Assembly (NCBI GenBank): GCA_026874595.1
Contig: CM049306.1
Coordinates: forward strand, 3,860,019 to 3,924,018
From: Sipunculus nudus
Taxonomy: Eukaryota > Annelida > Sipuncula > Golfingiida > Sipunculidae
Direction: 5' to 3'
Length of the DNA: 64,000 nucleotides
How positions within the stretch are numbered: position 1 is the stretch's first letter; each line of letters begins with the position of its first letter. Below, in pieces: positions 940 through 64,000 of the stretch. A program made the position numbers and the translations under genes. Below the pieces are notes generated by a model that worked only from the letters and a program-made list of their open reading frames with translations, had not been told where the DNA came from and searched no databases.

Positions 940-940
940 C

Positions 941-8949: not shown

Positions 8950-8954
8950 CTCGT

Positions 8955-35064: not shown

Positions 35065-35117
35065 TGGGAAATCGAACACCAAAAAAAAAATATATAGCAA
35101 TGGCCTTTCGTCCGTCG

Positions 35118-35149: not shown

Positions 35150-35286
35150 TTGTGGAGAAGATGTCTGCACCAAAAACACGACACAGGGCTGACCGTTACT
35201 ATTCAACACCTGTTATACTATAGATGGTTACGATGCTTAAAATGAACTAACACTATAAAAAGTTCTTTTCTTTTCTTCCTTTTCTT

Positions 35287-35287
35287 A

Positions 35288-35328
<41 letters not shown>

Positions 35329-35336
35329 TATTAAAT
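35287..35336. repeat. (ATT)n microsatellite
   Basis: About 15 near-perfect ATT units, simple-sequence repeat. Confidence 0.92.
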
Positions 35337-35968: not shown

Positions 35969-36043
35969 TATATAAACACCACCATTAACGTCATTTAAAG
36001 ACAACTTTAACAACACTCGCAGACAGGTAGCACTGATGAGAAG
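35969..36043 (+). promoter_or_regulatory. Candidate TATA promoter and short first exon
   Basis: TATATAAA at 35969-35976 is followed about 25-30 bp later by a possible start region, and at 36043/36044 by AAG|GTAGGG, which resembles a splice donor. No downstream exon is identified before the minisatellite. Such motif pairs arise by chance in AT-rich DNA, so this is a weak candidate. Confidence 0.2.
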
Positions 36044-38699
36044 GTAGGGGTTTGTATATACTAATATTTTCCTTATTTTACTTATTTATTTAAAAAAAAA
36101 ACCTGCATTGAATTTGCATATAGCGGGAGATAAGATCTGATATAACAGAAGTACCAGATACAAAATACATGTATATACCTGTTAATTAAGCAGTTAATTA
36201 TTGTTCTATTCAAAATATTGGGTAAAGGGTTTTTTTGTCTGTGGACCTACTTACGTCCACAAAACAAAACGATATGACTTTATTTCTGTCTCGAGTCATT
36301 TTCTTTTTCATCTAGATCTCCCAAAAATAATATATGGGAACAGTATCTATTTTTATACACTCTATAGATTTCCGTGATCTGTTCCATTATTTCTCGAATC
36401 TGTTGGCAGAAAATATGAATATTTCACCATATCTGTAATGCATTACACACTCTTTATTATTTTTCAAAGTACCCTATGGATTGAAAGTGTATGAAGTGTC
36501 TTCTTTTCCATTTTTATATACTTGAGTTACAATGTGACCTATGCATATGAACTAATGTAAAGTAAGGAGTTGTCTTCCATAAAGATATATTAACTAGACG
36601 TATTATAATTTTGTGTCATCCTAAGTCTCGCAATTCAAAGCATAGCACATCAGGCGTTGGCTGTATGTACAAAGCAAACATTATGATAAACAGGTAGATG
36701 GCGCCGAGGTATAAAGAACGACCTAGCGTATCGCCGTTTCGGCTCTCTAACATTACAAAGTCTACAATCAGCGTACTGAGCGTTAGGGTGCCTTTATATC
36801 CTGTAACAAGGACCTTACTGTTAGGCGCTATGAGGACGCAAATATTTTGTCATTTTTGAAAACGCTTCAAGGCCTATAAGTACGCTGTCACTTTACAAAT
36901 ACTTGGTTAATCGATAGTTTTTAAAGTATACTTTCTAACAACACCTGCCAAATGCGAGAAAAGTCCTGTTTTAACGCAGCATATTCTTAAAGCCATCAGC
37001 ATGTTTGTTTAATTTCTGACCGCATGAATGCCAGCATAGCGCACGGGTTACATGTCGGTGGTCAACTTGGACGCAATCCAGAAATGACTCGTTACCATGG
37101 AGATGGTGTGTGACTTCATGTATTTTTTGTGTTAAATCATCATTTGTTGCCGGATGTTAAGATTTTCGGATCTTTAAAACGATATATATGTAAACAGGAT
37201 AGGTGAGCGGTGAAGTAAATTCCGGTAAGGCTTGTACCACGACTCAAGATAGGCTTACCACCCCATTATAAATGCCCACTGAGTCGTACATTCACTGATA
37301 GACCTTGCGCCACTTGAGAGAGATGGGTTTGTATATTTAGTTGCAGGTCGGTGGCGGATTGTAGAAGAGACACCTACCTCTTAATGCTTCAGTACTTAGT
37401 ACGTGGCCAAAGTAGATAAGACACCTACCTCTTAATACTTCAGTACTTAGTACGTGGCCAAAGTAGATAAGACACCTACCTCTTTATGCTTCAGTATTAG
37501 TTTGTGGCCAAAGTAGATAAGACACTTACCTCTTTATGCTTCAGTATTAGTTTGTGGCCAAAGTAGATAAGACACCTACCTCTTTATGCTTCAGTATTAG
37601 TTTGTGGCCAAAGTAGATAAGACACCTACCTCTTTATGCTTCAGTACTTAGTACGTGGCCAAAGTAGATAAGACACCTACCTCTTTATGCTTCAGTATTA
37701 GTTTGTGGCCAAAGTAGATAAGACACCTACCTCTTTATGCTTCAGTATTAGTTTGTGGCCAAAGTAGATAAGACACCTACCTCTTTATGCTTCAGTATTA
37801 GTTTGTGGCCAAAGTAGATAAGACACCTACCTCTTTATGCTTCAGTATTAGTTTGTGGCCAAAGTAGATAAGACACCTACCTCTTAATGCTTCAGTACTT
37901 AGTACGTGGCCAAAGTAGATAAGACACCTACCTCTTTATGCTTCAGTATTTAGTTTGTGGCCAAAGTAGATAAGACACCTACCTCTTAATGCTTCAGTAC
38001 TTAGTACGTGGCCAAAGTAGATAAGACACCTACCTGTTTATGCTTCAGTACTTAGTACGTGGCCAAAGTAGATAAGACACCTAACTATTTATGCTTCAGT
38101 CTTTGTTTGTGGCCAAAGTAGATAAGACACCTACCTCTTAATGCTTCAGTATTAGTTTGTGGCCAAAGTAGATAAGACACCTACCTCTTTATGCTTCAGT
38201 ATTAGTTTGTGGCCAAAGTAGATAAGACACCTACCTCTTAATGCTTCAGTATTAGTATGTGGCCAAAGTAGATAAGACACCTACCTCTTTATGCTTCAGT
38301 ATTAGTACGTGGCCAAAGTAGATAAGACACCTACCTCTTTATGCTTCAGTATTAGTTTGTGGCCAAAGCAGATAAGACACCTAGCTCTTTATGCTTCAGT
38401 ATTAGTTTGTGGCCAAAGTAGATAACACACCTACCTCTTTATGCTTCAGTATTAGTTTGTGGCCAAAGTAGATAAGACACCTACCTCTTTATGCTTCAGT
38501 ACTTAGTACGTGGCCAAAGTAGATAAGACACCTACCTCTTTATGCTTCAGTATTAGTTTGTGGCCAAAGTAGATAAGACACCTACCTCTTTATGCTTCAG
38601 TATTAGTTTGTGGCCAAAGTAGATAAGACACCTACCTCTTTATGCTTCAGTATTAGTTTGTGGCCAAAGTAGATAAGACACCTACCTCTTTATGCTTCA

Positions 38700-41600
38700 G
38701 TATTAGTTTGTGGCCAAAGTAGATAAGACACCTACCTCTTAATGCTTCAGTACTTAGTACGTGGCCAAAGTAGATAAGACACCTACCTCTTTATGCTTCA
38801 GTATTTAGTTTGTGGCCAAAGTAGATAAGACACCTACCTCTTAATGCTTCAGTACTTAGTACGTGGCCAAAGTAGATAAGACACCTACCTGTTTATGCTT
38901 CAGTACTTAGTACGTGGCCAAAGTAGATAAGACACCTAACTATTTATGCTTCAGTCTTTGTTTGTGGCCAAAGTAGATAAGACACCTACCTCTTAATGCT
39001 TCAGTATTAGTTTGTGGCCAAAGTAGATAAGACACCTACCTCTTTATGCTTCAGTATTAGTTTGTGGCCAAAGTAGATAAGACACCTACCTCTTAATGCT
39101 TCAGTATTAGTATGTGGCCAAAGTAGATAAGACACCTACCTCTTTATGCTTCAGTATTAGTACGTGGCCAAAGTAGATAAGACACCTACCTCTTTATGCT
39201 TCAGTATTAGTTTGTGGCCAAAGCAGATAAGACACCTAGCTCTTTATGCTTCAGTACTTAGTACGTGGCCAAAGTAGATAAGACACCTACCTATTTATGC
39301 TTCAGTATTAGTTTGTGGCCAAAGTAGATAAGACACCTACCTCTTTATGCTTCAGTATTAGTTTGTGGCCAAAGTAGATAAGACACCTACCTCTTTATGC
39401 TTCAGTATTAGTTTGTGGCCAAAGTAGATAAGACACCTACCTCTTAATGCTTCAGTACTTAGTACGTGGCCAAAGTAGATAAGACACCTACCTCTTTATG
39501 CTTCAGTATTAGTTTGTGGCCAAAGTAGATAAGACACCTACCTATTTATGCTTCAGTATTAGTTTGTGGCCAAAGTAGATAAGACACCTACCTATTTATG
39601 TTTCAGTATTAGTTTGTGGCCAAAGTAGATAAGACACCTACCTCTTAATGCTTCAGTACTTAGTACGTGGCCAAAGTAGATAAGACACCTACCTCTTTAT
39701 GCTTCAGTATTAGTTTGTGGCCAAAGTAGATAAGACGCCTACCTATTTATGCTTCAGTATTAGTTTGTGGCCAAAGTAGATAAGACACCTACCTATTTAT
39801 GCTTCAGTATTAGTTTGTGGCCAAAGTAGATAAGACACCTACCTCTTAATGCTTCAGTACTTAGTACGTGGCCAAAGTAGATAAGACACCTACCTCTTTA
39901 TGCTTCAGTATTAGTTTGTGGCCAAAGTAGATAAGACACCTACCTCTTAATGCTTCAGTATTAGTATGTGGCCAAAGTAGATAAGACACCTACCTCTTTA
40001 TGCTTCAGTATTAGTTTGTGGCCAAAGTAGATAAGACACCTACCTATTTATGCTTCAGTATTAGTTTGTGGCCAAAGTAGATAAGACACCTACCTATTTA
40101 TGCTTCAGTATTAGTTTGTGGCCAAAGTAGATAAGACACCTACCTCTTAATGCTTCAGTACTTAGTACGTGGCCAAAGTAGATAAGACACCTACCTGTTT
40201 ATGCTTCAGTACTTAGTACGTGGCCAAAGTAGATAAGACACCTAACTATTTATGCTTCAGTATTTGTTTGTGGCCAAAGTAGATAAGACACCTACCTCTT
40301 AATGCTTCAGTATTAGTTTGTGGCCAAAGTAGATAAGACACCTACCTCTTTATGCTTCAGTATTAGTTTGTGGCCAAAGTAGATAAGACACCTACCTCTT
40401 AATGCTTCAGTATTCGTATGTGGCCAAAGTAGATAAGACACCTACCTCTTTATGCTTCAGTATTAGTACGTGGCCAAAGTAGATAAGACACCTACCTCTT
40501 TATGCTTCAGTTTTAGTTTGTGGCCAAAGCAGATAAGACACCTACCTCTTTATGCTTCAGTACCTAGTACGTGGCCAAAGTAGATAAGACACCTACCTAT
40601 TTATGCTTCAGTATTAGTTTGTGGCCAAAGTAGATAAGACACCTACCTCTTTATGCTTCAGTATTAGTTTGTGGCCAAAGTAGATAAGACACCTACCTCT
40701 TTATGCTTCAGTATTAGTTTGTGGCCAAAGTAGATAAGACACCTACCACTTAATGCTTCAGTACTTAGTACGTGGCCAAAGTAGATAAGACACCTACCTC
40801 TTTATGCTTCAGTATTAGTTTGTGGCCAAAGTAGATAAGACACCTACCTATTTATGCTTCAGTATTAGTTTGTGGCCAAAGTAGATAAGACACCTACCTC
40901 TTTATGCTTCAGTATTAGTTTGTGGCCAAAGTAGATAAGACACCTACCTCTTAATGCTTCAGTACTTAGTACGTGGCCAAAGTAGATAAGACACCTACCT
41001 ATTTATGCTTCAGTATTAGTTTGTGGCCAAAGTAGATAAGACACCTACCTCTTAATGCTTCAGTACTTAGTACGTGGCCAAAGTAGATAAGACACCTACC
41101 TGTTTATGCTTCAGTACTTAGTACGTGGCCAAAGTAGATAAGACACCTAACTATTTATGCTTCAGTATTTGTTTGTGGCCAAAGTAGATAAGACACCTAC
41201 CTCTTAATGCTTCAGTATTAGTTTGTGGCCAAAGTAGATAAGACACCTACCTCTTTATGCTTCAGTATTAGTTTGTGGCCAAAGTAGATAAGACACCTAC
41301 CTCTTAATGCTTCAGTATTAGTATGTGGCCAAAGTAGATAAGACACCTACCTCTTTATGCTTCAGTATTAGTACGTGGCCAAAGTAGATAAGACACCTAC
41401 CTCTTAATGCTTCAGTATTAGTTTGTGGCCAAAGTAGATAAGACACCTACCTCTTTATGCTTCAGTATTAGTTTGTGGCCAAAGTAGATAAGACACCTAC
41501 CTCTTAATGCTTCAGTATTAGTATGTGGCCAAAGTAGATAAGACACCTACCTCTTTATGCTTCAGTATTAGTACGTGGCCAAAGTAGATAAGACACCTAC

Positions 41601-44600
41601 CTCTTTATGCTTCAGTATTAGTTTGTGGCCAAAGCAGATAAGACACCTAGCTCTTTATGCTTCAGTATTAGTTTGTGGCCAAAGTAGATAAGACACCTAC
41701 CTCTTTATGCTTCAGTATTAGTTTGTGGCCAAAGTAGATAAGACCCTACCTCTTTATGCTTCAGTACTTAGTACGTGGCCAAAGTAGATAAGACACCTAC
41801 CTCTTTATGCTTCAGTATTAGTTTGTGGCCAAAGTAGATAAGACACCTACCTCTTTATGCTTCAGTATTAGTTTGTGGCCAAAGTAGATAAGACACCTAC
41901 CTCTTTATGCTTCAGTATTAGTTTGTGGCCAAAGTAGATAAGACACCTACCTCTTTATGCTTCAGTATTAGTTTGTGGCCAAAGTAGATAAGACACCTAC
42001 CTCTTAATGCTTCAGTACTTAGTACGTGGCCAAAGTAGATAAGACACCTACCTCTTTATGCTTCAGTATTTAGTTTGTGGCCAAAGTAGATAAGACACCT
42101 ACCTCTTAATGCTTCAGTACTTAGTACGTGGCCAAAGTAGATAAGACACCTACCTGTTTATGCTTCAGTACTTAGTACGTGGCCAAAGTAGATAAGACAC
42201 CTAACTATTTATGCTTCAGTCTTTGTTTGTGGCCAAAGTAGATAAGACACCTACCTCTTAATGCTTCAGTATTAGTTTGTGGCCAAAGTAGATAAGACAC
42301 CTACCTCTTTATGCTTCAGTATTAGTTTGTGGCCAAAGTAGATAAGACACCTACCTCTTAATGCTTCAGTATTAGTATGTGGCCAAAGTAGATAAGACAC
42401 CTACCTCTTTATGCTTCAGTATTAGTACGTGGCCAAAGTAGATAAGACACCTACCTCTTTATGCTTCAGTATTAGTTTGTGGCCAAAGCAGATAAGACAC
42501 CTAGCTCTTTATGCTTCAGTACTTAGTACGTGGCCAAAGTAGATAAGACACCTACCTATTTATGCTTCAGTATTAGTTTGTGGCCAAAGTAGATAAGACA
42601 CCTACCTCTTTATGCTTCAGTATTAGTTTGTGGCCAAAGTAGATAAGACACCTACCTCTTTATGCTTCAGTATTAGTTTGTGGCCAAAGTAGATAAGACA
42701 CCTACCTCTTAATGCTTCAGTACTTAGTACGTGGCCAAAGTAGATAAGACACCTACCTCTTTATGCTTCAGTATTAGTTTGTGGCCAAAGTAGATAAGAC
42801 ACCTACCTATTTATGCTTCAGTATTAGTTTGTGGCCAAAGTAGATAAGACACCTACCTATTTATGTTTCAGTATTAGTTTGTGGCCAAAGTAGATAAGAC
42901 ACCTACCTCTTAATGCTTCAGTACTTAGTACGTGGCCAAAGTAGATAAGACACCTACCTCTTTATGCTTCAGTATTAGTTTGTGGCCAAAGTAGATAAGA
43001 CGCCTACCTATTTATGCTTCAGTATTAGTTTGTGGCCAAAGTAGATAAGACACCTACCTATTTATGCTTCAGTATTAGTTTGTGGCCAAAGTAGATAAGA
43101 CACCTACCTCTTAATGCTTCAGTACTTAGTACGTGGCCAAAGTAGATAAGACACCTACCTCTTTATGCTTCAGTATTAGTTTGTGGCCAAAGTAGATAAG
43201 ACACCTACCTCTTAATGCTTCAGTATTAGTATGTGGCCAAAGTAGATAAGACACCTACCTCTTTATGCTTCAGTATTAGTTTGTGGCCAAAGTAGATAAG
43301 ACACCTACCTATTTATGCTTCAGTATTAGTTTGTGGCCAAAGTAGATAAGACACCTACCTATTTATGCTTCAGTATTAGTTTGTGGCCAAAGTAGATAAG
43401 ACACCTACCTCTTAATGCTTCAGTACTTAGTACGTGGCCAAAGTAGATAAGACACCTACCTGTTTATGCTTCAGTACTTAGTACGTGGCCAAAGTAGATA
43501 AGACACCTAACTATTTATGCTTCAGTATTTGTTTGTGGCCAAAGTAGATAAGACACCTACCTCTTAATGCTTCAGTATTAGTTTGTGGCCAAAGTAGATA
43601 AGACACCTACCTCTTTATGCTTCAGTATTAGTTTGTGGCCAAAGTAGATAAGACACCTACCTCTTAATGCTTCAGTATTAGTATGTGGCCAAAGTAGATA
43701 AGACACCTACCTCTTTATGCTTCAGTATTAGTACGTGGCCAAAGTAGATAAGACACCTACCTCTTTATGCTTCAGTTTTAGTTTGTGGCCAAAGCAGATA
43801 AGACACCTACCTCTTTATGCTTCAGTACCTAGTACGTGGCCAAAGTAGATAAGACACCTACCTATTTATGCTTCAGTATTAGTTTGTGGCCAAAGTAGAT
43901 AAGACACCTACCTCTTTATGCTTCAGTATTAGTTTGTGGCCAAAGTAGATAAGACACCTACCTCTTTATGCTTCAGTATTAGTTTGTGGCCAAAGTAGAT
44001 AAGACACCTACCACTTAATGCTTCAGTACTTAGTACGTGGCCAAAGTAGATAAGACACCTACCTCTTTATGCTTCAGTATTAGTTTGTGGCCAAAGTAGA
44101 TAAGACACCTACCTATTTATGCTTCAGTATTAGTTTGTGGCCAAAGTAGATAAGACACCTACCTCTTTATGCTTCAGTATTAGTTTGTGGCCAAAGTAGA
44201 TAAGACACCTACCTCTTAATGCTTCAGTACTTAGTACGTGGCCAAAGTAGATAAGACACCTACCTATTTATGCTTCAGTATTAGTTTGTGGCCAAAGTAG
44301 ATAAGACACCTACCTCTTAATGCTTCAGTACTTAGTACGTGGCCAAAGTAGATAAGACACCTACCTGTTTATGCTTCAGTACTTAGTACGTGGCCAAAGT
44401 AGATAAGACACCTAACTATTTATGCTTCAGTATTTGTTTGTGGCCAAAGTAGATAAGACACCTACCTCTTAATGCTTCAGTATTAGTTTGTGGCCAAAGT
44501 AGATAAGACACCTACCTCTTTATGCTTCAGTATTAGTTTGTGGCCAAAGTAGATAAGACACCTACCTCTTAATGCTTCAGTATTAGTATGTGGCCAAAGT

Positions 44601-45600
44601 AGATAAGACACCTACCTCTTTATGCTTCAGTATTAGTACGTGGCCAAAGTAGATAAGACACCTACCTCTTTATGCTTCAGTTTTAGTTTGTGGCCAAAGC
44701 AGATAAGACACCTACCTCTTTATGCTTCAGTACCTAGTACGTGGCCAAAGTAGATAAGACACCTACCTATTTATGCTTCAGTATTAGTTTGTGGCCAAAG
44801 TAGATAAGACACCTACCTCTTTATGCTTCAGTATTAGTTTGTGGCCAAAGTAGATAAGACACCTACCTCTTTATGCTTCAGTATTAGTTTGTGGCCAAAG
44901 TAGATAAGACACCTACCACTTAATGCTTCAGTACTTAGTACGTGGCCAAAGTAGATAAGACACCTACCTCTTTATGCTTCAGTATTAGTTTGTGGCCAAA
45001 GTAGATAAGACACCTACCTATTTATGCTTCAGTATTAGTTTGTGGCCAAAGTAGATAAGACACCTACCTCTTTATGCTTCAGTATTAGTTTGTGGCCAAA
45101 GTAGATAAGACACCTACCTCTTAATGCTTCAGTACTTAGTACGTGGCCAAAGTAGATAAGACACCTACCTCTTTATGCTTCAGTATTAGTTTGTGGCCAA
45201 AGTAGATAAGACACCTACCTCTTAATGCTTCAGTATTAGTATGTGGCCAAAGTAGATAAGACACCTACCTCTTTATGCTTCAGTATTAGTTTGTGGCCAA
45301 AGTAGATAAGACACCTACCTATTTATGCTTCAGTATTAGTTTGTGGCCAAAGTAGATAAGACACCTACCTATTTATGCTTCAGTATTAGTTTGTGGCCAA
45401 AGTAGATAAGACACCTACCTCTTAATGCTTCAGTACTTAGTACGTGGCCAAAGTAAATAAGACACCTACCTGTTTATGCTTCAGTACTTAGTACGTGGCC
45501 AAAGTAGATAAGACACCTAACTATTTATGCTTCAGTCTTTGTTTGTGGCCAAAGTAGATAAGACACCTACCTCTTAATGCTTCAGTATTAGTTTGTGGCC
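38700..45600. repeat. Higher-order repeats in the left sub-array (3,265 bp)
   Basis: The rare variant CTAACTATTTATGCTTCAGT occurs at 38081, 38936, 40242, 41147, 42201, 43507, 44412 and 45517. Spacings are 855, 1306, 905, 1054, 1306, 905 and 1105. Thus 38936, 40242 and 41147 each have a partner exactly 3,265 bp later. Another variant, CACCTACCACTTAATG (near 40744 and 44006), agrees. This is a long tandem duplication of about 65 monomers with no net indel. Confidence 0.92.
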
Positions 45601-45699
45601 AAAGTAGATAAGACACCTACCTCTTTATGCTTCAGTATTAGTTTGTGGCCAAAGTAGATAAGACACCTACCTCTTAATGCTTCAGTATTAGTATGTGGC

Positions 45700-48600
45700 C
45701 AAAGTAGATAAGACACCTACCTCTTTATGCTTCAGTATTAGTACGTGGCCAAAGTAGATAAGACACCTACCTCTTAATACTTCAGTACTTAGTACGCGGC
45801 CAAAGGAGATAAGACACCTACCTCTTAATGCTTCAGTACTTTGTACGTGGCCAAAGTAGATAAGACACCTACCTCTTAATGCTTCAGTATTAGTTTGTGG
45901 CCAAAGTAGATAAGACACCTACCTATTTATGCTTCAGTATTAGTTTGTGGCCAAAGTAGATAAGACACCTACCTCTTAATGCTTCAGTATTAGTACGTGG
46001 CCAAAGTAGATAAGACACCTACCTCTTTATGCTTCAGTATTAGTTTGTGACCAAAGTAGATAAGACACCTATTTCTGTATGCTTCAGTATTAGTTTGTGG
46101 CCAAAGTAGATAAGACACCTACCTCTTTATGCTTCAGTATTAGTTTGTGGCCAAAGTAGATAAGACACCTACCTATTTATGCTTCAGTATTAGTATGTGG
46201 CCAAAGTAGATAAGACACCTACCTATTTATGCTTCAGTATTGGTATGTGGCCAAAGTAGATAAGACACCTACCTCTTAATGCTTCAGTATTAGTTTGTGA
46301 CCAAAGTAGATAAGACACCTACCTCTTAATGCTTCAGTACTTAGTACGTGGCCAAAGTAGATAAGACACCTACCTCTTAATGCTTCAGTACTTAGTACGT
46401 GGCCAAAGTAGATAAAACACCTACCTCTTTATGCTTCAGTACTTAGTTTGTGGCCAAAGTAGATAAGACACCTACCTATTTATGCTTCAGTATTAGTTTG
46501 TGGCCAAAGTAGATAAGACACCTACCTCTTAATGCTTCAGTACTTAGTACGTGGCCAAAGTAGATAAGACACCTACCTCTTAATGCATCAGTATTAGTTT
46601 GTGGCCAAAGTAGATAAGACACCTACCTATTTATGCTTCAGTATTAGTTTGTGGCCAAAGTAGATAAGACACCTACCTCTTTATGCTTCAGTATTAGTTT
46701 GTGGCCAAAGTAGATAAGACACCTACCTATTTATGCTTCAGTATTAGTTTGTGGCCAAAGTAGATAAGACACCTACCTATTTATGCTTCAGTATTAGTTT
46801 GTGGCCAAAGTAGATAAGACACCTACCTATTTATGCTTCAGTATTAGTTTGTGGCCAAAGTAGATAAGACACCTACCTCTTAATGCTTCAGTACTTAGTA
46901 CGTGGCCAAAGTAGATAAGACACCTACCTCTTAATGCTTCAGTATTAGTACGTGGCCAAAGTAGATAAGACACCTACCTCTTTATGCTTCAGTATTAGTT
47001 TGTGACCAAAGTAGATAAGACACCTATTTCTGTATGCTTCAGTATTAGTTTGTGGCCAAAGTAGATAAGACACCTACCTCTTTATGCTTCAGTATTAGTT
47101 TGTGGCCAAAGTAGATAAGACACCTACCTATTTATGCTTCAGTATTAGTATGTGGCCAAAGTAGATAAGACACCTACCTATTTATGCTTCAGTATTGGTA
47201 TGTGGCCAAAGTAGATAAGACACCTACCTCTTAATGCTTCAGTATTAGTTTGTGACCAAAGTAGATAAGACACCTACCTCTCAATGCTTCAGTACTTAGT
47301 ACGTGGCCAAAGTAGATAAGACACCTACCTCTTTATGCTTCAGTATTAGTTTGTGGCCAAAGTAGATAAGACACCTACCTATTTATGCTTCAGTATTAGT
47401 TTGTGGCCAAAGTAGATAAGACACCTACCTATTTATGCTTCAGTATTAGTTTGTGGCCAAAGTAGATAAGACACCTACCTATTTATGCTTCAGTATTAGT
47501 TTGTGGTCAAAGTAGATAAGACACCTACCTCTTAATGCTTCAGTACTTAGTACGTGGCCAAAGTAGATAAGACACCTACCTCTTTATGCTTCAGTATTAG
47601 TTTGTGGCCAAAGTAGATAAGACACCTACCTATTTATGCTTCAGTATTAGTTTGTGGCCAAAGTAGATAAGACACCTACCTCTTAATGCTTCAGTATTAG
47701 TTTATGACCAAAGTAGATAAGACACCTACCTCTTAATGCTTCAGTACTTAGTACGTGGCCAAAGTAGATAAGACACCTACCTCTTAATGCTTCAGTATTA
47801 GTTTGTGACCAAAGTAGATAAGACACCTACCTCTTAATGCTTCAGTACTTAGTACGTGGCCAAAGTAGATAAGACACCTACCTATTTATGCTTAAGTATT
47901 AGTTTGTGGCCAAAGTAGATAAGACACCTACCTATTTATGCTTCAGTATTAGTTTGTGGCCAAAGTAGATAAGACACCTACCTCTTAATGCTTCAGTATT
48001 AGTTTGTGGCCAAAGTAGATAAGACACCTACCTCTTAATGCTTCAGTATTAGTACGTGGCCAAAGTAGATAAGACACCTACCTCTTAATACTTCAGTACT
48101 TAGTACGCGGCCAAAGGAGATAAGACACCTACCTCTTAATGCTTCAGTACTTTGTACGTGGCCAAAGTAGATAAGACACCTACCTCTTAATGCTTCAGTA
48201 TTAGTTTGTGGCCAAAGTAGATAAGACACCTACCTATTTATGCTTCAGTATTAGTTTGTGGCCAAAGTAGATAAGACACCTACCTCTTAATGCTTCAGTA
48301 CTTAGTACGTGGCCAAAGTAGATAAGACACCTACCTCTTTATGCTTCAGTACTTAGTACGTGGCCAAAGTAGATAAGACACCTACCTATTTATGCTTCAG
48401 TACTTAGTACGTGGCCAAAGTAGATAAGACACCTACCTCTTTATGCTTCAGTACTTAGTACGTGGCCAAAGTAGATAAGACACCTACCTCTTTATGCTTC
48501 AGTATTAGTTTGTGGCCAAAGTAGATAAGACACCTACCTCTTAATGCTTCAGTATTAGTTTGTGGCCAAAGTAGATAAGACACCTACCTCTTAATGCTTC

Positions 48601-51600: not shown

Positions 51601-54600
51601 TGCTTCAGTATTAGTTTGTGGCCAAAGTAGATAAGACACCTACCTATTTATGCCCTATTAGTTTGTGGCCAAAGTAGATAAGACACCTACCTATTTATGC
51701 TTCAGTATTAGTTTGTGGCCAAAGTAGATAAGACACCTACCTATTTATGCTTCAGTATTAGTTTGTGGCCAAAGTAGATAAGACACCTACCTCTTAATGC
51801 TTCAGTACTTAGTACGTTGCCAAAGTAGATAAGACACCTACCTCTTTATGCTTCAGTATTAGTTTGTGGCCAAAGTAGATAAGACACCTACCTATTTATG
51901 CTTCAGTATTAGTTAGTGGCCAAAGTAGATAAGACACCTACCTATTTATGCTTCAGTATTAGTTTGTGGTCAAAGTAGATAAGACACCTACCTCTTAATG
52001 CTTCAGTACTTAGTACGTGGCCAAAGTAGATAAGACACCTACCTCTTTATGCTTCAGTATTAGTTTGTGGCCAAAGTAGATAAGACACCTACCTATTTAT
52101 GCTTCAGTATTAGTTTGTGGCCAAAGTAGATAAGACACCTACCTCTTAATGCTTCAGTATTAGTTTATGACCAAAGTAGATAAGACACCTACCTCTTAAT
52201 GCTTCAGTACTTAGTACGTGGCCAAAGTAGATAAGACACCTACCTCTTAATGCTTCAGTATTAGTTTGTGACCAAAGTAGATAAGACACCTACCTCTTAA
52301 TGCTTCAGTACTTAGTACGTGGCCAAAGTAGATAAGACACCTACCTATTTATGCTTAAGTATTAGTTTGTGGCCAAAGTAGATAAGACACCTACCTATTT
52401 ATGCTTCAGTATTAGTTTGTGGCCAAAGTAGATAAGACACCTACCTCTTAATGCTTCAGTATTAGTTTGTGGCCAAAGTAGATAAGACACCTACCTCTTA
52501 ATGCTTCAGTATTAGTACGTGGCCAAAGTAGATAAGACACCTACCTCTTAATACTTCAGTACTTAGTACGCGGCCAAAGGAGATAAGACACCTACCTCTT
52601 AATGCTTCAGTACTTTGTACGTGGCCAAAGTAGATAAGACACCTACCTCTTAATGCTTCAGTATTAGTTTGTGGCCAAAGTAGATAAGACACCTACCTAT
52701 TTATGCTTCAGTATTAGTTTGTGGCCAAAGTAGATAAGACACCTACCTCTTAATGCTTCAGTACTTAGTACGTGGCCAAAGTAGATAAGACACCTACCTC
52801 TTTATGCTTCAGTACTTAGTACGTGGCCAAAGTAGATAAGACACCTACCTATTTATGCTTCAGTACTTAGTACGTGGCCAAAGTAGATAAGACACCTATT
52901 TCTGTATGCTTCAGTATTCGTTTGTGGCCAAAGTAGATAAGACACCTACCTCTTTATGCTTCAGTATTAGTTTGTGGCCAAAGTAGATAAGACACCTACC
53001 TCTTAATGCTTCAGTATTAGTTTGTGGCCAAAGTAGATAAGACACCTACCTCTTAATGCTTCAGTATTAGTTTGTGACCAAAGTAGATAAGACACCTATT
53101 TCTGTATGCTTCAGTATTAGTTTGTGGCCAAAGTAGATAAGACACCTATTTCTGTATGCTTCAGTATTAGTTTGTGGCCAAAGTAGATAAGACACCTACC
53201 TCTTTATGCTTCAGTATTAGTTTGTGGCCAAAGTAGATAAGACACCTATTTCTGTATGCTTCAGTATTAGTTTGTGGCCAAAGTAGATAAGACACCTACC
53301 TCTTAATGCTTCAGTATTAGTTTGTGGCCAAAGTAGATAAGACACCTACCTCTTAATGCTTCAGTATTAGTACGTGGCCAAAGTAGATAAGACACCTACC
53401 TCTTTATGCATCAGTATTAGTTTGTGACCAAAGTAGATAAGACACCTATTTCTGTATGCTTCAGTATTAGTTTGTGGCCAAAGTAGATAAGACACCTACC
53501 TCTTTATGCTTCAGTATTAGTTTGTGGCCAAAGTAGATAAGACACCTACCTATTTATGCTTCAGTATTAGTATGTGGCCAAAGTAGATAAGACACCTACC
53601 TATTTATGCTTCAGTATTGGTATGTGGCCAAAGTAGATAAGACACCTACCTCTTAATGCTTCAGTATTAGTTTGTGACCAAAGTAGATAAGACACCTACC
53701 TCTTAATGCTTCAGTACTTAGTACGTGGCCAAAGTAGATAAGACACCTACCTCTTTATGCTTCAGTATTAGTTTGTGGCCAAAGTAGATCAGACACCTAC
53801 CTATTTATGCTTCAGTATTAGTTTGTGGCCAAAGTAGATAAGACACCTACCTATTTATGCTTCAGTATTAGTTTGTGGCCAAAGTAGATAAGACACCTAC
53901 CTCTTAATGCTTCAGTACTTAGTACGTGGCCAAAGTAGATAAGACACCTACCTCTTAATGCATCAGTATTAGTTTGTGGCCAAAGTAGATAAGACACCTA
54001 CCTATTTATGCTTCAGTATTAGTTTGTGGCCAAAGTAGATAAGACACCTACCTCTTTATGCTTCAGTATTAGTTTGTGGCCAAAGTAGATAAGACACCTA
54101 CCTCTTAATGCTTCAGTATTAGTTTGTGGCCAAAGTAGATAAGACACCTACCTCTTAATGCTTCAGTATTAGTACGTGGCCAAAGTAGATAAGACACCTA
54201 CCTCTTTATGCTTCAGTATTAGTTTGTGACCAAAGTAGATAAGACACCTATTTCTGTATGCTTCAGTATTAGTTTGTGGCCAAAGTAGATAAGACACCTA
54301 CCTCTTAATGCTTCAGTATTAGTTTGTGACCAAAGTAGATAAGACACCTACCTCTTAATGCTTCAGTACTTAGTACGTGGCCAAAGTAGATAAGACACCT
54401 ACCTCTTTATGCTTCAGTATTAGTTTGTGGCCAAAGTAGATAAGACACCTACCTATTTATGCTTCAGTATTAGTTTGTGGCCAAAGTAGATAAGACACCT
54501 ACCTATTTATGCTTCAGTATTAGTTTGTGGCCAAAGTAGATAAGACACCTACCTATTTATGCTTCAGTATTAGTTTGTGGCCAAAGTAGATAAGAAACCT

Positions 54601-57600
54601 ACCTCTTAATGCTTCAGTACTTAGTACGTGGCCAAAGTAGATAAGACACCGACCTCTTTATGCTTCAGTATTAGTTTGTGGCCAAAGTAGATAAGACACC
54701 TACCTATTTATGCTTCAGTATTAGTTTGTGGCCAAAGTAGATAAGACACCTACCTATTTATGCTTCAGTATTAGTTTGTGGCCAAAGTAGATCAGACACC
54801 TACCTCTTAATGCTTCAGTATTAGTACGTGGCCAAAGTAGATAAGACACCTACCTCTTTATGCTTCAGTATTAGTTTGTGACCAAAGTAGATAAGACACC
54901 TATTTCTGTATGCTTCAGTATTAGTTTGTGGCCAAAGTAGATAAGACACCTACCTCTTTATGCTTCAGTATTAGTTTGTGGCCAAAGTAGATAAGACACC
55001 TACCTATTTATGCTTCAGTATTAGTATGTGGCCAAAGTAGATAAGACACCTACCTATTTATGCTTCAGTATTGGTATGTGGCCAAAGTAGATAAGACACC
55101 TACCTCTTAATGCTTCAGTATTAGTTTGTGACCAAAGTAGATAAGACACCTACCTCTTAATGCTTCAGTACTTAGTACGTGGCCAAAGTAGATAAGACAC
55201 CTACCTCTTTATGCTTCAGTATTAGTTTGTGGCCAAAGTAGATAAGACACCTACCTATTTATGCTTCAGTATTAGTTTGTGGCCAAAGTAGATAAGACAC
55301 CTACCTATTTATGCTTCAGTATTAGTTTGTGGCCAAAGTAGATAAGACACCTACCTATTTATGCTTCAGTATTAGTTTGTGGCCAAAGTAGATAAGACAC
55401 CTACCTCTTAATGCTTCAGTACTTAGTACGTGGCCAAAGTAGATAAGACACCTACCTCTTTATGCTTCAGTATTAGTTTGTGGCCAAAGTAGATAAGACA
55501 CCTACCTATTTATGCTTCAGTATTAGTTAGTGGCCAAAGTAGATAAGACACCTACCTATTTATGCTTCAGTATTAGTTTGTGGTCAAAGTAGATAAGACA
55601 CCTACCTCTTAATGCTTCAGTACTTAGTACGTGGCCAAAGTAGATAAGACACCTACCTCTTTATGCTTCAGTATTAGTTTGTGGCCAAAGTAGATAAGAC
55701 ACCTACCTATTTATGCTTCAGTATTAGTTTGTGGCCAAAGTAGATAAGACACCTACCTCTTAATGCTTCAGTATTAGTTTATGACCAAAGTAGATAAGAC
55801 ACCTACCTCTTAATGCTTCAGTACTTAGTACGTGGCCAAAGTAGATAAGACACCTACCTCTTAATGCTTCAGTATTAGTTTGTGACCAAAGTAGATAAGA
55901 CACCTACCTCTTAATGCTTCAGTACTTAGTACGTGGCCAAAGTAGATAAGACACCTACCTATTTATGCTTAAGTATTAGTTTGTGGCCAAAGTAGATAAG
56001 ACACCTACCTATTTATGCTTCAGTATTAGTTTGTGGCCAAAGTAGATAAGACACCTACCTCTTAATGCTTCAGTATTAGTTTGTGGCCAAAGTAGATAAG
56101 ACACCTACCTCTTAATGCTTCAGTATTAGTACGTGGCCAAAGTAGATAAGACACCTACCTCTTAATACTTCAGTACTTAGTACGCGGCCAAAGGAGATAA
56201 GACACCTACCTCTTAATGCTTCAGTACTTTGTACGTGGCCAAAGTAGATAAGACACCTACCTCTTAATGCTTCAGTATTAGTTTGTGGCCAAAGTAGATA
56301 AGACACCTACCTATTTATGCTTCAGTATTAGTTTGTGGCCAAAGTAGATAAGACACCTACCTCTTAATGCTTCAGTACTTAGTACGTGGCCAAAGTAGAT
56401 AAGACACCTACCTCTTTATGCTTCAGTACTTAGTACGTGGCCAAAGTAGATAAGACACCTACCTATTTATGCTTCAGTACTTAGTACGTGGCCAAAGTAG
56501 ATAAGACACCTACCTCTTTATGCTTCAGTACTTAGTACGTGGCCAAAGTAGATAAGACACCTATTTCTGTATGCTTCAGTATTCGTTTGTGGCCAAAGTA
56601 GATAAGACACCTACCTCTTTATGCTTCAGTATTAGTTTGTGGCCAAAGTAGATAAGACACCTACCTCTTAATGCTTCAGTATTAGTTTGTGGCCAAAGTA
56701 GATAAGACACCTACCTCTTAATGCTTCAGTATTAGTTTGTGACCAAAGTAGATAAGACACCTATTTCTGTATGCTTCAGTATTAGTTTGTGGCCAAAGTA
56801 GATAAGACACCTATTTCTGTATGCTTCAGTATTAGTTTGTGGCCAAAGTAGATAAGACACCTACCTCTTTATGCTTCAGTATTAGTTTGTGGCCAAAGTA
56901 GATAAGACACCTATTTCTGTATGCTTCAGTATTAGTTTGTGGCCAAAGTAGATAAGACACCTACCTCTTAATGCTTCAGTATTAGTTTGTGGCCAAAGTA
57001 GATAAGACACCTACCTCTTAATGCTTCAGTATTAGTACGTGGCCAAAGTAGATAAGACACCTACCTCTTTATGCATCAGTATTAGTTTGTGACCAAAGTA
57101 GATAAGACACCTATTTCTGTATGCTTCAGTATTAGTTTGTGGCCAAAGTAGATAAGACACCTACCTCTTTATGCTTCAGTATTAGTTTGTGGCCAAAGTA
57201 GATAAGACACCTACCTATTTATGCTTCAGTATTAGTATGTGGCCAAAGTAGATAAGACACCTACCTATTTATGCTTCAGTATTGGTATGTGGCCAAAGTA
57301 GATAAGACACCTACCTCTTAATGCTTCAGTATTAGTTTGTGACCAAAGTAGATAAGACACCTACCTCTTAATGCTTCAGTACTTAGTACGTGGCCAAAGT
57401 AGATAAGACACCTACCTCTTTATGCTTCAGTATTAGTTTGTGGCCAAAGTAGATCAGACACCTACCTATTTATGCTTCAGTATTAGTTTGTGGCCAAAGT
57501 AGATAAGACACCTACCTATTTATGCTTCAGTATTAGTTTGTGGCCAAAGTAGATAAGACACCTACCTCTTAATGCTTCAGTACTTAGTACGTGGCCAAAG

Positions 57601-60600
57601 TAGATAAGACACCTACCTCTTAATGCATCAGTATTAGTTTGTGGCCAAAGTAGATAAGACACCTACCTATTTATGCTTCAGTATTAGTTTGTGGCCAAAG
57701 TAGATAAGACACCTACCTCTTTATGCTTCAGTATTAGTTTGTGGCCAAAGTAGATAAGACACCTACCTATTTATGCTTCAGTATTAGTTTGTGGCCAAAG
57801 TAGATAAGACACCTACCTATTTATGCTTCAGTATTAGTTTGTGGCCAAAGTAGATAAGACACCTACCTCTTAATGCTTCAGTATTAGTTTGTGGCCAAAG
57901 TAGATAAGACACCTATTTCTGTATGCTTCAGTATTAGTTTGTGGCCAAAGTAGATAAGACACCTACCTCTTAATGCTTCAGTATTAGTTTGTGGCCAAAG
58001 TAGATAAGACACCTACCTCTTAATGCTTCAGTATTACTTTGTGACCAAAGTAGATAAGACACCTATTTCTGTATGCTTCAGTATTAGTTTGTGGCCAAAG
58101 TAGATAAGACACCTATTTCTGTATGCTTCAGTATTAGTTTTTGGCCAAAGTAGATAAGACACCTACCTATTTATGCTTCAGTATTAGTTTGTGGCCAAAG
58201 TAGATAAGACACCTACCTCTTAATGCTTCAGTACTTAGTACGTGGCCAAAGTAGATAAGACACCTACCTCTTAATGCTTCAGTATTAGTACGTGGCCAAA
58301 GTAGATAAGACACCTACCTCTTTATGCTTCAGTATTAGTTTGTGACCAAAGTAGATAAGACACCTATTTCTGTATGCTTCAGTATTAGTTTGTGGCCAAA
58401 GTAGATAAGACACCTACCTCTTTATGCTTCAGTATTAGTTTGTGGCCAAAGTAGATAAGACACCTACCTATTTATGCTTCAGTATTAGTATGTGGCCAAA
58501 GTAGATAAGACACCTACCTATTTATGCTTCAGTATTGGTATGTGGCCAAAGTAGATAAGACACCTACCTCTTAATGCTTCAGTATTAGTTTGTGACCAAA
58601 GTAGATAAGACACCTACCTCTTAATGCTTCAGTACTTAGTACGTGGCCAAAGTAGATAAGACACCTACCTCTTTATGCTTCAGTATTAGTTTGTGGCCAA
58701 AGTAGATAAGACACCTACCTATTTATGCTTCAGTATTAGTTTGTGGCCAAAGTAGATAAGACACCTACCTATTTATGCTTCAGTATTAGTTTGTGGCCAA
58801 AGTAGATAAGACACCTACCTATTTATGCTTCAGTATTAGTTTGTGGTCAAAGTAGATAAGACACCTACCTCTTAATGCTTCAGTACTTAGTACGTGGCCA
58901 AAGTAGATAAGACACCTACCTCTTTATGCTTCAGTATTAGTTTGTGGCCAAAGTAGATAAGACACCTACCTATTTATGCTTCAGTATTAGTTTGTGGCCA
59001 AAGTAGATAAGACACCTACCTCTTAATGCTTCAGTATTAGTTTATGACCAAAGTAGATAAGACACCTACCTCTTAATGCTTCAGTACTTAGTACGTGGCC
59101 AAAGTAGATAAGACACCTACCTCTTAATGCTTCAGTATTAGTTTGTGACCAAAGTAGATAAGACACCTACCTCTTAATGCTTCAGTACTTAGTACGTGGC
59201 CAAAGTAGATAAGACACCTACCTATTTATGCTTAAGTATTAGTTTGTGGCCAAAGTAGATAAGACACCTACCTATTTATGCTTCAGTATTAGTTTGTGGC
59301 CAAAGTAGATAAGACACCTACCTCTTAATGCTTCAGTATTAGTTTGTGGCCAAAGTAGATAAGACACCTACCTCTTAATGCTTCAGTATTAGTACGTGGC
59401 CAAAGTAGATAAGACACCTACCTCTTAATACTTCAGTACTTAGTACGCGGCCAAAGGAGATAAGACACCTACCTCTTAATGCTTCAGTACTTTGTACGTG
59501 GCCAAAGTAGATAAGACACCTACCTCTTAATGCTTCAGTATTAGTTTGTGGCCAAAGTAGATAAGACACCTACCTATTAATGCTTCAGTATTAGTTTGTG
59601 GCCAAAGTAGATAAGACACCTACCTCTTAATGCTTCAGTACTTAGTACGTGGCCAAAGTAGATAAGACACCTACCTCTTTATGCTTCAGTACTTAGTACG
59701 TGGCCAAAGTAGATAAGACACCTACCTATTTATGCTTCAGTACTTAGTACGTGGCCAAAGTAGATAAGACACCTACCTCTTTATGCTTCAGTACTTAGTA
59801 CGTGGCCAAAGTAGATAAGACACCTATTTCTGTATGCTTCAGTATTAGTTTGTGGCCAAAGTAGATAAGACACCTACCTCTTTATGCTTCAGTATTAGTT
59901 TGTGGCCAAAGTAGATAAGACACCTACCTCTTAATGCTTCAGTATTAGTTTGTGGCCAAAGTAGATAAGACACCTACCTCTTAATGCTTCAGTATTAGTT
60001 TGTGACCAAAGTAGATAAGACACCTATTTCTGTATGCTTCAGTATTAGTTTGTGGCCAAAGTAGATAAGACACCTATTTCTGTATGCTTCAGTATTAGTT
60101 TGTGGCCAAAGTAGATAAGACACCTACCTCTTTATGCTTCAGTATTAGTTTGTGGCCAAAGTAGATAAGACACCTATTTCTGTATGCTTCAGTATTAGTT
60201 TGTGGCCAAAGTAGATAAGACACCTACCTCTTAATGCTTCAGTATTAGTTTGTGGCCAAAGTAGATAAGACACCTACCTCTTAATGCTTCAGTATTAGTA
60301 CGTGGCCAAAGCAGATAAGACACCTACCTCTTTATGCTTCAGTATTAGTTTGTGACCAAAGTAGATAAGACACCTATTTCTGTATGCTTCAGTATTAGTT
60401 TGTGGCCAAAGTAGATAAGACACCTACCTCTTTATGCTTCAGTATTAGTTTGTGGCCAAAGTAGATAAGACACCTACCTATTTATGCTTCAGTATTAGTA
60501 TGTGGCCAAAGTAGATAAGACACCTACCTATTTATGCTTCAGTATTGGTATGTGGCCAAAGTAGATAAGACACCTACCTCTTAATGCTTCAGTATTAGTT

Positions 60601-63600
60601 TGTGACCAAAGTAGATAAGACACCTACCTCTTAATGCTTCAGTACTTAGTACGTGGCCAAAGTAGATAAGACACCTACCTCTTTATGCTTCAGTATTAGT
60701 TTGTGGCCAAAGTAGATAAGACACCTACCTATTTATGCTTCAGTATTAGTTTGTGGCCAAAGTAGATAAGACACCTACCTATTTATGCTTCAGTATTAGT
60801 TTGTGGCCAAAGTAGATAAGACACCTACCTCTTAATGCTTCAGTACTTAGTACGTGGCCAAAGTAGATAAGACACCTACCTCTTAATGCATCAGTATTAG
60901 TTTGTGGCCAAAGTAGATAAGACACCTACCTATTTATGCTTCAGTATTAGTTTGTGGCCAAAGTAGATAAGACACCTACCTCTTTATGCTTCAGTATTAG
61001 TTTGTGGCCAAAGTAGATAAGACACCTATTTCTGTATGCTTCAGTATTAGTTTGTGGCCAAAGTAGATAAGACACCTACCTATTTATGCTTCAGTATTAG
61101 TTTGTGGCCAAAGTAGATAAGAAACCTACCTCTTAATGCTTCAGTACTTAGTACGTGGCCAAAGTAGATAAGACACATACCTCTTTATGCTTCAGTATTA
61201 GTTTGTGGCCAAAGTAGAAAAGACACCTACCTCTTAATGCTTCAGTACTTAGTACGTGGCCAAAGTAGATAAGACACCTACCTCTTAATGCTTCAGTATT
61301 AGTTTGTGGCCAAAGTAGATAAGACACCTACCTATTTATGCTTCAGTATTAGTTTGTGGCCAAAGTAGATAAGACACCTACCTCTTAATGCTTCAGTACT
61401 TAGTACGTGGCCAAAGTAGATAAGACACCTACCTCTTAATGCTTCAGTATTAGTTTGTGGCCAAAGTAGATAAGACACCTACCTATTTATGCTTCAGTAT
61501 TAGTTTGTGGCCAAAGTAGATAAGACACCTACCTCTTAATGCTTCAGTACTTAGTACGTGGCCAAAGTAGATAAGACACCTACCTCTTTATGCTTCAGTA
61601 CTTAGTACGTGGCCAAAGTAGATAAGACACCTACCTATTTATGCTTCAGTATTAGTTTTTGGCCAAAGTAGATAAGACACCTACCTCTTAATGCTTCAGT
61701 ATTAGTTTGTGGCCAAAGTAGATAAGACACCTACCTCTTAATGCTTCAGTATTAGTACGTGGCCAAAGTAGATAAGACACCTACCTCTTTATGCTTCAGT
61801 ATTAGTTTGTGACCAAAGTAGATAAGACACCTGTTTCTGTATGCTTCAGTATTAGTTTGTGGCCAAAGTAGATAAGACACCTACCTCTTAATGCTTCAGT
61901 ATTAGTTTGTGGCCAAAGTAGATAAGACACCTATTTCTGTATGCTTCAGTATTAGTTTGTGGCCAAAGTAGATAAGACACCTATTTCTGTATGCTTCAGT
62001 ATCAGTTTGTGGCCAAAGTAGATAAGACACCTACCTCTTAATGCTTCAGTATTAGTTTGTGGCCAAAGTAGATAAGACACCTACCTCTTAATGCTTCAGT
62101 ATTAGTTTGTGACCAAAGTAGATAAGACACCTATTTCTGTATGCTTCAGTTTTAGTTTGTGGCCAAAGTAGATAAGACACCTATTTCTGTATGCTTCAGT
62201 ATTAGTTTGTGGCCAAAGTAGATAAGACACCTACCTCTTTATGCTTCAGTATTAGTTTGTGGCCAAAGTAGATAAGACACCTATTTCTGTATGCTTCAGT
62301 ATTAGTTTGTGGCCAAAGTAGATAAGACACCTACCTCTTAATGCTTCAGTATTAGTACGTGGCCAAAGTAGATAAGACACCTACCTCTTTATGCTTCAGT
62401 ATTAGTTTGTGACCAAAGTAGATAAGACACCTATTTCTGTATGCTTCAGTATTAGTTTGTGGCCAAAGTAGATAAGACACATACCTCTTTATGCTTCAGT
62501 ATTAGTTTGTGGCCAAAGTAGATAAGACACCTACCTATTTATGCTTCAGTATTAGTATGTGGCCAAAGTAGATAAGACACCTACCTATTTATGCTTCAGT
62601 ATTGGTATGTGGCCAAAGTAGATAAGACACCTACCTCTTAATGCTTCAGTATTAGTTTGTGACCAAAGTAGATAAGACACCTACCTCTTAATGCTTCAGT
62701 ACTTAGTACGTGGCCAAAGTAGATAAGACACCTACCTCTTTATGCTTCAGTATTAGTTTGTGGCCAAAGTAGATAAGACACCTACCTATTTATGCTTCAG
62801 TATTAGTTTGTGGCCAAAGTAGATAAGACACCTACCTATTTATGCTTCAGTATTAGTTTGTGGCCAAAGTAGATAAGACACCTACCTCTTAATGCTTCAG
62901 TACTTAGTACGTGGCCAAAGTAGATAAGACACCTACCTCTTAATGCATCAGTATTAGTTTGTGGCCAAAGTAGATAAGACACCTACCTATTTATGCTTCA
63001 GTATTAGTTTGTGGCCAAAGTAGATAAGACACCTACCTATTTATGCTTCAGTATTAGTTTGTGGCCAAAGTAGATAAGACACCTACCTCTTAATGCTTCA
63101 GTATTAGTTTGTGGCCAAAGTAGATAAGACACCTACCTCTTAATGCTTCAGTATTAGTACGTGGCCAAAGTAGATAAGACACCTACCTCTTAATACTTCA
63201 GTACTTAGTACGCGGCCAAAGGAGATAAGACACCTACCTCTTAATGCTTCAGTACTTTGTACGTGGCCAAAGTAGATAAGACACCTACCTCTTAATGCTT
63301 CAGTATTAGTTTGTGGCCAAAGTAGATAAGACACCTACCTATTTATGCTTCAGTATTAGTTTGTGGCCAAAGTAGATAAGACACCTACCTCTTAATGCTT
63401 CAGTACTTAGTACGTGGCCAAAGTAGATAAGACACCTACCTCTTTATGCTTCAGTACTTAGTACGTGGCCAAAGAAGATAAGACACCTACCTATTTATGC
63501 TTCAGTACTTAGTACGTGGCCAAAGTAGATAAGACACCTACCTCTTTATGCTTCAGTACTTAGTACGTGGCCAAAGTAGATAAGACACCTATTTCTGTAT

Positions 63601-64000
63601 GCTTCAGTATTCGTTTGTGGCCAAAGTAGATAAGACACCTACCTCTTTATGCTTCAGTATTAGTTTGTGGCCAAAGTAGATAAGACACCTACCTCTTAAT
63701 GCTTCAGTATTAGTTTGTGGCCAAAGTAGATAAGACACCTACCTCTTAATGCTTCAGTATTAGTTTGTGACCAAAGTAGATAAGACACCTATTTCTGTAT
63801 GCTTCAGTATTAGTTTGTGGCCAAAGTAGATAAGACACCTATTTCTGTATGCTTCAGTATTAGTTTGTGGCCAAAGTAGATAAGACACCTACCTCTTTAT
63901 GCTTCAGTATTAGTTTGTGGCCAAAGTAGATAAGACACCTATTTCTGTATGCTTCAGTATTAGTTTGTGGCCAAAGTAGATAAGACACCTACCTCTTAAT
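45700..64000. repeat. Higher-order repeats in the right sub-array
   Basis: The marker monomer with CGCGGCCAAAGGAG occurs at 45795, 48106, 52569, 56183, 59446 and 63211 (spacings 2311, 4463, 3614, 3263 and 3765). TGGTATGTGG occurs at 46241, 47196, 49156, 51461, 53618, 55072, 57283, 58536, 60546 and 62603. Offsets shared between markers (3611-3614 for 51461 and 52569; 3263 for 56183 and 57283) show block duplications of different lengths. The CCTATTTCTGTATGC and GTGACC variants are confined to this half. Confidence 0.9.

What the first reader, a model, noticed from the sequence alone, without database searches (positions are those of the whole stretch)
37361..64000. A minisatellite array over 26.6 kb long with several levels of higher-order structure
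One 50/51-bp family fills 42% of the window without interruption and continues past its edge. Variant monomers form repeating strings: about 0.9-1.3 kb blocks inside a 3,265-bp block, then a second half with its own markers. Higher-order organisation is known for centromeric satellites. In a 50-bp minisatellite of this size it is unusual, and could mark a centromere-like, sex-linked or hypervariable locus.
Basis: seen in the sequence. Interest (0 to 1): 0.8.

Follow-up and report, generated by a model that had tools for sequence, protein, structure and literature searches.

The report
Giant single-locus 50-bp repeat array
A 50-base piece of DNA near transfer-RNA genes appears to have been copied in place thousands of times, in blocks within blocks, into a stretch of about 228,000 bases at what looks like one spot on one eukaryotic chromosome; it is a large case of a known kind of repeat growth, with no sign so far that it is a centromere.

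Summary
A 50/51-bp family runs unbroken from 37361 to the window edge; in the source genome (1.43 Gb, contig C1 of 110.9 Mb) it ends near C1:4,125,646, so the locus is ~228 kb (half read in full, the rest sampled). Two monomer patterns have 3397 and 2890 forward and 0 reverse matches genome-wide, as a single locus would. Nested blocks are real: 0.9 kb, 3.27 kb (99.9% alike), irregular 3.1-4.5-kb units, and shifts of 7.0 and 16.9 kb; one insert recurs 18 times at one junction, with spacings of 14.2 and 33.9 kb. A simple neutral model of block duplication, deletion and mutation comes close to the window's statistics. A likely source was found: a 50-bp box abutting the array has four relatives in the genome search that was answered, one inverted 4.3 kb past the far end, three near tRNA genes at 93 Mb, each beside one diverged monomer-like segment. 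Best reading: local amplification of a tRNA-cluster spacer segment by unequal exchange or repair. Centromere binding, sex-linkage and hypervariability could not be tested; apparent single-locus occurrence and irregular units argue against a general centromeric satellite. Human and plant precedents exist.

The parts
37361..64000 (+). 50/51-bp minisatellite array, window part; in the genome it runs C1:3,897,379 to about 4,125,646 (~228 kb with inserts)
37361..45751 (+). left-edge domain: 24 monomer types, 19 of them absent from the rest of the window array
38116..41381 (+). first copy of the 65-monomer, ~3,265-bp block
41382..44646 (+). second copy of the 65-monomer block, 99.9% identical to the first (2 mismatches, 1 gap)
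45752..48818 (+). right-domain unit R1, 61 monomers
48819..53280 (+). right-domain unit R2, 89 monomers
53281..56945 (+). right-domain unit R3, 73 monomers
56946..60208 (+). right-domain unit R4, 65 monomers
60209..63973 (+). right-domain unit R5, 75 monomers
37308..37357 (-). 50-bp box abutting the array; relatives at C1:4,129,979-4,130,159 and three at C1:93.175-93.209 Mb, where one monomer-like segment lies beside it; likely source family of the monomer
36669..36719 (-). second short piece (about 76% over 49-54 bp) of the same low-copy family, about 600 bp from the box

Best explanation
It is a non-coding minisatellite, apparently at a single locus, grown to satellite size. A 50-bp segment of a low-copy sequence family that lies near tRNA genes (one copy beside the box in each relative found) was amplified in tandem next to the box at 37308-37357. 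The array then grew and reshuffled by repeated, mostly in-register duplication and deletion of blocks from a few monomers up to tens of kilobases (unequal sister-chromatid exchange, or break-induced or strand-slippage repair), faster than point mutation, which gives irregular nested higher-order units. Shown: size (in part by samples), orientation, nesting, mostly in-register junctions, co-amplification of one insert, related segment at the other places. Inferred: single locus, which recombination route, that the source was spacer DNA, and that the growth is selectively neutral.
For: Whole-monomer gains and losses: 528 of 529 window monomers are 50 or 51 bp. Five right-domain units of 61/89/73/65/75 monomers share a core; identical aligned monomers range from 37 of 64 (R4-R5) to 52 of 58 (R1-R4). 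Left block pair 99.9% identical. Longer-range copying in the first 116.6 kb: 9,633 bp identical at shift 16,857; 13 successive 500-bp windows at 99.8-100% at shift 7,028. One insert (~0.57 kb) at the same junction 18 times, 9 exact and 9 with one mismatch (up to 2 allowed), all on +, C1:3,995,803-4,073,182, with spacings of 33,851 and 14,207 bp each shared by three pairs. Neutral model: of 24 settings, 5 runs each, the closest (blocks up to 100 monomers, 0.4 mutations per event) gives medians of 59 types, 21 singletons, 90%, 77% and 43% of monomers in repeated strings of 4, 8 and 15, longest 39; observed 59, 17, 90%, 74%, 51%, 37. Single locus: 3397 forward/0 reverse and 2890/0. Source: a whole-genome search with the right-hand relative finds 5 places, itself included, and one of them is the left box plus the first monomer, 74% over 97 bp, E 8.4e-7. 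The monomer-like segment beside the box scores above chance: 0 of 2000 shuffles reach it in one test of the right copy; 1, 7, 12 and 5 of 2000 for the four relatives in another.
Against: The model setting was picked by eye among 24 and tests only window statistics; it does not exclude selection. Settings with blocks of at most 20 monomers fitted worse (and those of at most 5 ran for a different number of events). Not every junction is in register: among 2285 intervals in the first 116.6 kb, 2265 are 50 or 51 bp, but five are 91 bp (one shortened monomer, copied), two hold the insert, and the other 13 are 47, 49 or 99-101 bp. The monomer-source match is modest, the shuffles keep base content only, and the 93-Mb copies are 90-100% alike in the stretches compared, so they count as about one witness. 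The search with the left box itself did not complete. Of the array, C1:4,014,019-4,124,199 (110 kb) was seen only in ten samples (5.3 kb). No reads, no second individual.
Confidence: 0.8

Rival explanations
1. The array is a chromosome-specific centromere (or part of one) of an acrocentric or telocentric chromosome C1, and its block structure is the homogenised core typical of centromeric satellites.
For: Long array with higher-order blocks; most of the 10-kb stretches between C1:3.907 and 3.987 Mb have few private monomer types, while the first 10 kb and the stretch from 3.987 Mb have more; position about 3.5% along a 110.9-Mb contig. Minisatellites can lie at centromeres, one of them on only two chromosome pairs (Nothobranchius, PMC2688266 passages; FabTR-2, PMC7004042 passages).
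Against: Apparently one locus; irregular units; tRNA genes 25-45 kb to the left. No CENP-B box in the window array (motif recalled), though that motif is not required. Whether the C1 start is a telomere is unknown: C1:1-600 shows no telomere repeat.
Confidence: 0.07
2. Assembly inflation: a shorter true array was extended by the assembler joining near-identical blocks or both haplotypes.
For: Exact repeats of 9,633 bp at 16,857 bp are the kind of thing that assemblers mis-resolve.
Against: Many block copies differ by point changes and whole-monomer indels; both flanks lie in one contig.
Confidence: 0.08
3. The array has a selected function as DNA or RNA, for example a repeat RNA or a chromatin boundary beside the tRNA genes.
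For: tRNA genes lie to its left, and degraded tRNA-like stretches to its right; all monomers found point the same way.
Against: No long open frame (longest stop-free run 39 codons on +, 76 on -), no Rfam hit in the window array, no unusual folding in the four pieces folded; a neutral model comes close for the window. No expression data were on hand.
Confidence: 0.05

Closest known systems
Human locus-specific VNTR arrays with higher-order repeats (PMC2588610; passages and Table 1 seen), e.g. the 61-bp VNTR of Xp22.33, 18.6 kb, irregular HORs of 1.6 and 2.4-2.5 kb
   Same: Locus-specific minisatellite with irregular higher-order repeats; the same paper describes an element inserted in a monomer and then expanded with the higher-order repeat
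   Different: Here ~228 kb; that survey gives classical VNTRs 'as large as 50 kb' (the 125-bp DYZ19 is 246 kb). Nesting here reaches tens of kb
FabTR-2, 49-bp satellite of Lathyrus sativus (PMC7004042; passages seen)
   Same: About the same monomer length, long arrays, several higher-order patterns that differ between arrays
   Different: FabTR-2 labels all chromosomes and matches the CenH3 pattern; this family appears to be at one locus
Human alpha-satellite HOR arrays (background passage in PMC2588610)
   Same: Block copies much more alike than monomers
   Different: Units here are irregular; monomers are 50 bp and on average about 6% apart; apparently one locus
Human minisatellites read as variant-repeat maps (MSY1, PMC2599865; MS1, PMC5408865; passages seen)
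   Same: A few base variants of one short unit, read as letter strings, in blocks or interspersed
   Different: Those alleles are about 1-5.5 kb in the passages seen; variability between individuals is untested here

Membership tests
Minisatellite (unit 11-60 bp, PMC12692304) | Tandem unit of 11-60 bp | tested here: met
   50/51 bp
Minisatellite / VNTR | Single locus | tested here: met
   Two patterns forward only, 3397/0 and 2890/0; the hits listed are all on C1. The lists were capped, so this is an inference from strand, density and listed places
Minisatellite / VNTR | Repeat number differs between individuals | not testable with these tools
   One assembly only
Satellite DNA by array length (tens of kb up to Mb, PMC7004042) | Array of tens of kb to Mb | tested here: met
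   116.6 kb read, ~228 kb in all by samples and end
Higher-order repeat array | Multi-monomer blocks more alike than monomers | tested here: met
   99.9% in register vs 94.4% one monomer off; 9,633 bp exact at shift 16,857
Alpha-satellite-type regular HOR array | Regular unit with fixed monomer number | tested here: not met
   Units of 61, 89, 73, 65, 75 monomers
General centromeric satellite | Present on many or all chromosomes | tested here: not met
   with the limits above
Centromere | Bound by centromeric histone | not testable with these tools
   needs ChIP
Coding repeat | Long open frame through the repeat | tested here: not met
   longest stop-free run 39 (+) and 76 (-) codons in the window array

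The most novel reading that the evidence does not exclude
A spacer segment of a tRNA-gene region, single copy beside its box elsewhere, has become a ~228-kb self-reorganising array on one chromosome that serves, or is on the way to serve, as a chromosome-specific centromere or heterochromatin block, so that the birth of a satellite from a known parent sequence can be read step by step.
Probability: 0.07. Interest if true: 0.7.

Novelty: new member of a known kind. Interest (0 to 1): 0.38.

Why it matters
It is uncommon (as I recall) for a satellite-size array to come with its parent sequence. Here one array, apparently at one locus, still abuts a box whose few relatives each keep a putative parent segment, and one insert has been copied at least 18 times inside it. 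That makes it a usable natural record of how a short segment grows into a satellite-size array and of block copying compared with point mutation. As a finding about function it is ordinary.

Tried and rejected
Coding array: rejected, stops in all frames. Structured repeat: two monomers and one trimer on both strands fold no better than shuffles. Known RNA: no Rfam hit in the window array at gathering scores. Monomer elsewhere in the window's left 37.36 kb: only chance 10-11-bp matches. Relatives by exact pattern in viral contigs and prokaryote genomes and by blastn in plasmids: none, as expected for a eukaryote. Monomer words in papers: six words, two unrelated papers by one 12-letter word, none for the others. 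Common ancestral 65-monomer order of left and right domains: weak (26 of 1000 shuffles reach the ungapped value; gapped score 5.8 against a maximum of 5.4 in 60 shuffles), left undecided. Genes beside the array: six-frame Pfam of 33700-37360 gave only a below-cut-off endonuclease hit, E 0.0011; right flank L039:200-9500 none; relative L043 none. The co-amplified insert reads to me like the 3' end of a LINE (recalled); Pfam found nothing at E 0.1 in three reverse frames, so the name is unproven. The box as a widespread transposon: not supported, 5 places in the answered DNA search and 2 by pattern with up to 2 mismatches; a looser pattern and the search with the left box did not complete.
Full report
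What was checked. TRF finds one array from 37361 to 63997, period 50, 530 copies. Monomer cutting gives 529 whole monomers, 528 of them 50 or 51 bp, in 59 exact types. The mean pairwise difference is 3.25 columns of 51, i.e. about 94% identity (the one 47-mer left out). The order is strongly non-random: 389 of 529 monomers lie in exactly repeated strings of at least 8 monomers (0 in 50 shuffles), and the longest repeat is 37 monomers (4-6 in 21 shuffles).

Anatomy in the window. The left domain (37361-45751) holds a 65-monomer block twice, 99.9% identical over 3,266 bp, and inner shifts of 855 and 905 bp. The right domain (45752 to the edge) holds five units that end in the same monomer string, of 61, 89, 73, 65 and 75 monomers. 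On a text alignment of the units, aligned monomers are identical in 37 of 64 (R4-R5) to 52 of 58 (R1-R4) cases; the units also differ by whole-monomer gains and losses. 5 types are shared by the two domains, against a mean of 31 in shuffles. So the higher-order units are real but irregular.

The whole locus. The window is C1:3,860,019-3,924,018 of a genome of 1.4265 Gb in 153 contigs; C1 is 110,913,107 bp. I fetched C1:3,924,019-4,014,018 whole; monomers run through it, broken by two copies of one insert and some irregular spacings. Ten samples from there to 4,124,300 all hold forward monomers, samples from 4,126,000 on hold none, and L039 puts the end at about 4,125,646, 228,268 bp from the start. 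So 110 kb (4,014,019-4,124,199) was seen only in samples of 5.3 kb in all. A monomer pattern has 3397 forward and 0 reverse matches in the whole genome, 2005 of them in C1:3,860,019-4,014,018. The other 1392 come to about 62 per 5 kb over the remaining ~112 kb, and the three full 5-kb bins from 3,995,019 hold 53-67. A second pattern with up to 3 mismatches has 2890 forward and 0 reverse. The tool listed only the first places, and one search scored 40 of 142 candidates, so single locus is an inference from strand, density and listed places.

Larger nesting. In the first 116.6 kb of array there are exact repeats of 9,633 bp at a shift of 16,857 and of 4,510, 3,562 and 3,266 bp at other shifts, and 13 successive windows of 500 bp at 99.8-100% at shift 7,028. 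By 10-kb bins, 29% of monomers in the first bin are of types private to it, 0-4% between 3.907 and 3.987 Mb, and 9-19% in the last three bins. From C1:3,995,803 to 4,073,182 one ~0.57-kb insert sits at the same junction 18 times (9 exact, 9 with one mismatch); spacings of 33,851 and 14,207 bp are each shared by three pairs. The two copies that I compared are 98.7% identical over 628 columns, 50 bp of monomer included. The simplest reading is that it landed once and was copied with the array.

How it works. Mostly in-register junctions (2265 of 2285 intervals in the first 116.6 kb are 50 or 51 bp) and whole-monomer indels point to homologous exchange or repair synthesis within the array; five 91-bp intervals show a shortened monomer that was itself copied. 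A minimal simulation (block duplication and deletion with log-uniform size, plus point mutation; 24 settings, 5 runs each) comes close to the window's numbers when blocks reach 100 monomers and about 0.4 mutations fall on the array per block event; it under-predicts the share in 15-strings (43% against 51%); smaller maximum block sizes fit worse. This shows that selection is not needed for such order; it does not show that there is none. The mutation-to-block ratio is a model number, not a measured rate.

Where the monomer came from. BLAST of flank against flank found a 50-bp box (37308-37357, 82%) with an inverted copy beyond the array's right end. A pattern of the box with up to 2 mismatches, N at the positions where the two differ in its middle, has exactly these two matches in the genome. 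A search with the right-hand copy (181 bp) finds 5 places: itself, three on C1 at 93.175-93.209 Mb (71-72% over ~170 bp) and the left box together with most of the first array monomer (74% over 97 bp, E 8.4e-7). The search with the left box did not complete, and this tool scores only its best candidates, so further relatives may exist. The right copy and a 93-Mb copy are alike over ~900 bp (66%), a stretch that at 93 Mb holds a tRNA (L043:1108-1197), with more tRNAs nearby; the right copy L042 itself has no tRNA at Rfam's cut-off, but two short stretches to the right of the array are 82-84% like tRNA genes of the window. Beside the box, on the array side, each relative has one diverged monomer-like segment: for the right copy 0 of 2000 shuffles reach the score in one test, and 1, 7, 12 and 5 of 2000 for the four relatives in another, in the same place and order. 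The 93-Mb copies are near-duplicates of one another in the stretches compared, so they are not independent. I conclude, at perhaps 75%, that the monomer is an amplified segment of this low-copy family; that the family is tRNA-cluster spacer is inferred from the neighbouring tRNAs.

Comparison with print. PMC2588610 (passages and a table seen) lists human VNTRs of 36-61 bp marked HOR, one in pseudoautosomal Xp22.33 with irregular 1.6- and 2.5-kb units, and describes an element inserted in a monomer and expanded with it. FabTR-2 of Lathyrus is a 49-bp satellite with several HOR patterns that matches the centromeric histone pattern (PMC7004042, passages). Nothobranchius has 24-, 49- and 77-bp minisatellites in centromeric regions (PMC2688266, passages). 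So neither the order nor the monomer length is without precedent; the size for an apparently single-locus ~50-bp family and the visible candidate parent are the notable points. The monomer was not found in print (six words). In the topic searches I read only the listings (searches list 20 of 21 and 20 of 29 papers), and no listed title names an array of this kind and size; most papers behind them I did not open.

Verdict. Observation confirmed and enlarged; interpretation as a special chromosomal locus not supported so far. A large, instructive member of a known kind.

Noticed in passing
window 1-2007 and 8088-10094: A 2-kb tRNA-bearing unit is repeated at 8,087 bp, 98.8% identical, with tRNA-Ser(GCT), tRNA-Ala(TGC) and a third tRNA on the other strand; the third reads to me like an intron-bearing tRNA-Tyr. 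L018 holds a further Ser-Ala pair.
   Followed up: partly
window 2961-4295 and 30022-33778: 145/290-bp tandem repeats that carry AGGTCAAAGGTCA, 14 forward and 1 reverse exact matches in the window (the reverse one lies at 24443); it resembles a DR1 nuclear-receptor site (recalled).
   Followed up: no
window 27355-28008 (-): Reverse transcriptase fragment, Pfam RVT_1, E 2.3e-20: probably a degraded retroelement.
   Followed up: no
window about 34251-34556 (-): Weak endonuclease match, E 0.0011, below Pfam's cut-off; perhaps another retroelement remnant.
   Followed up: no
window 37361-64000: CpG observed/expected is 0.16 in the array and 0.66 in the left flank; the common 51-mer has its one CpG at TACGTGG and a TATGTGG variant exists, as CpG decay would give.
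   Followed up: no
L016:1790-2362 (C1:3,995,808-3,996,380): Insert of ~0.57 kb with a GATAT-type short repeat at one end, found 18 times at the same junction in the array; type unproven.
   Followed up: partly
   Followed up: no
window 24782-25149 and 17185-17335: A second, different 54-bp minisatellite in two places.
   Followed up: no
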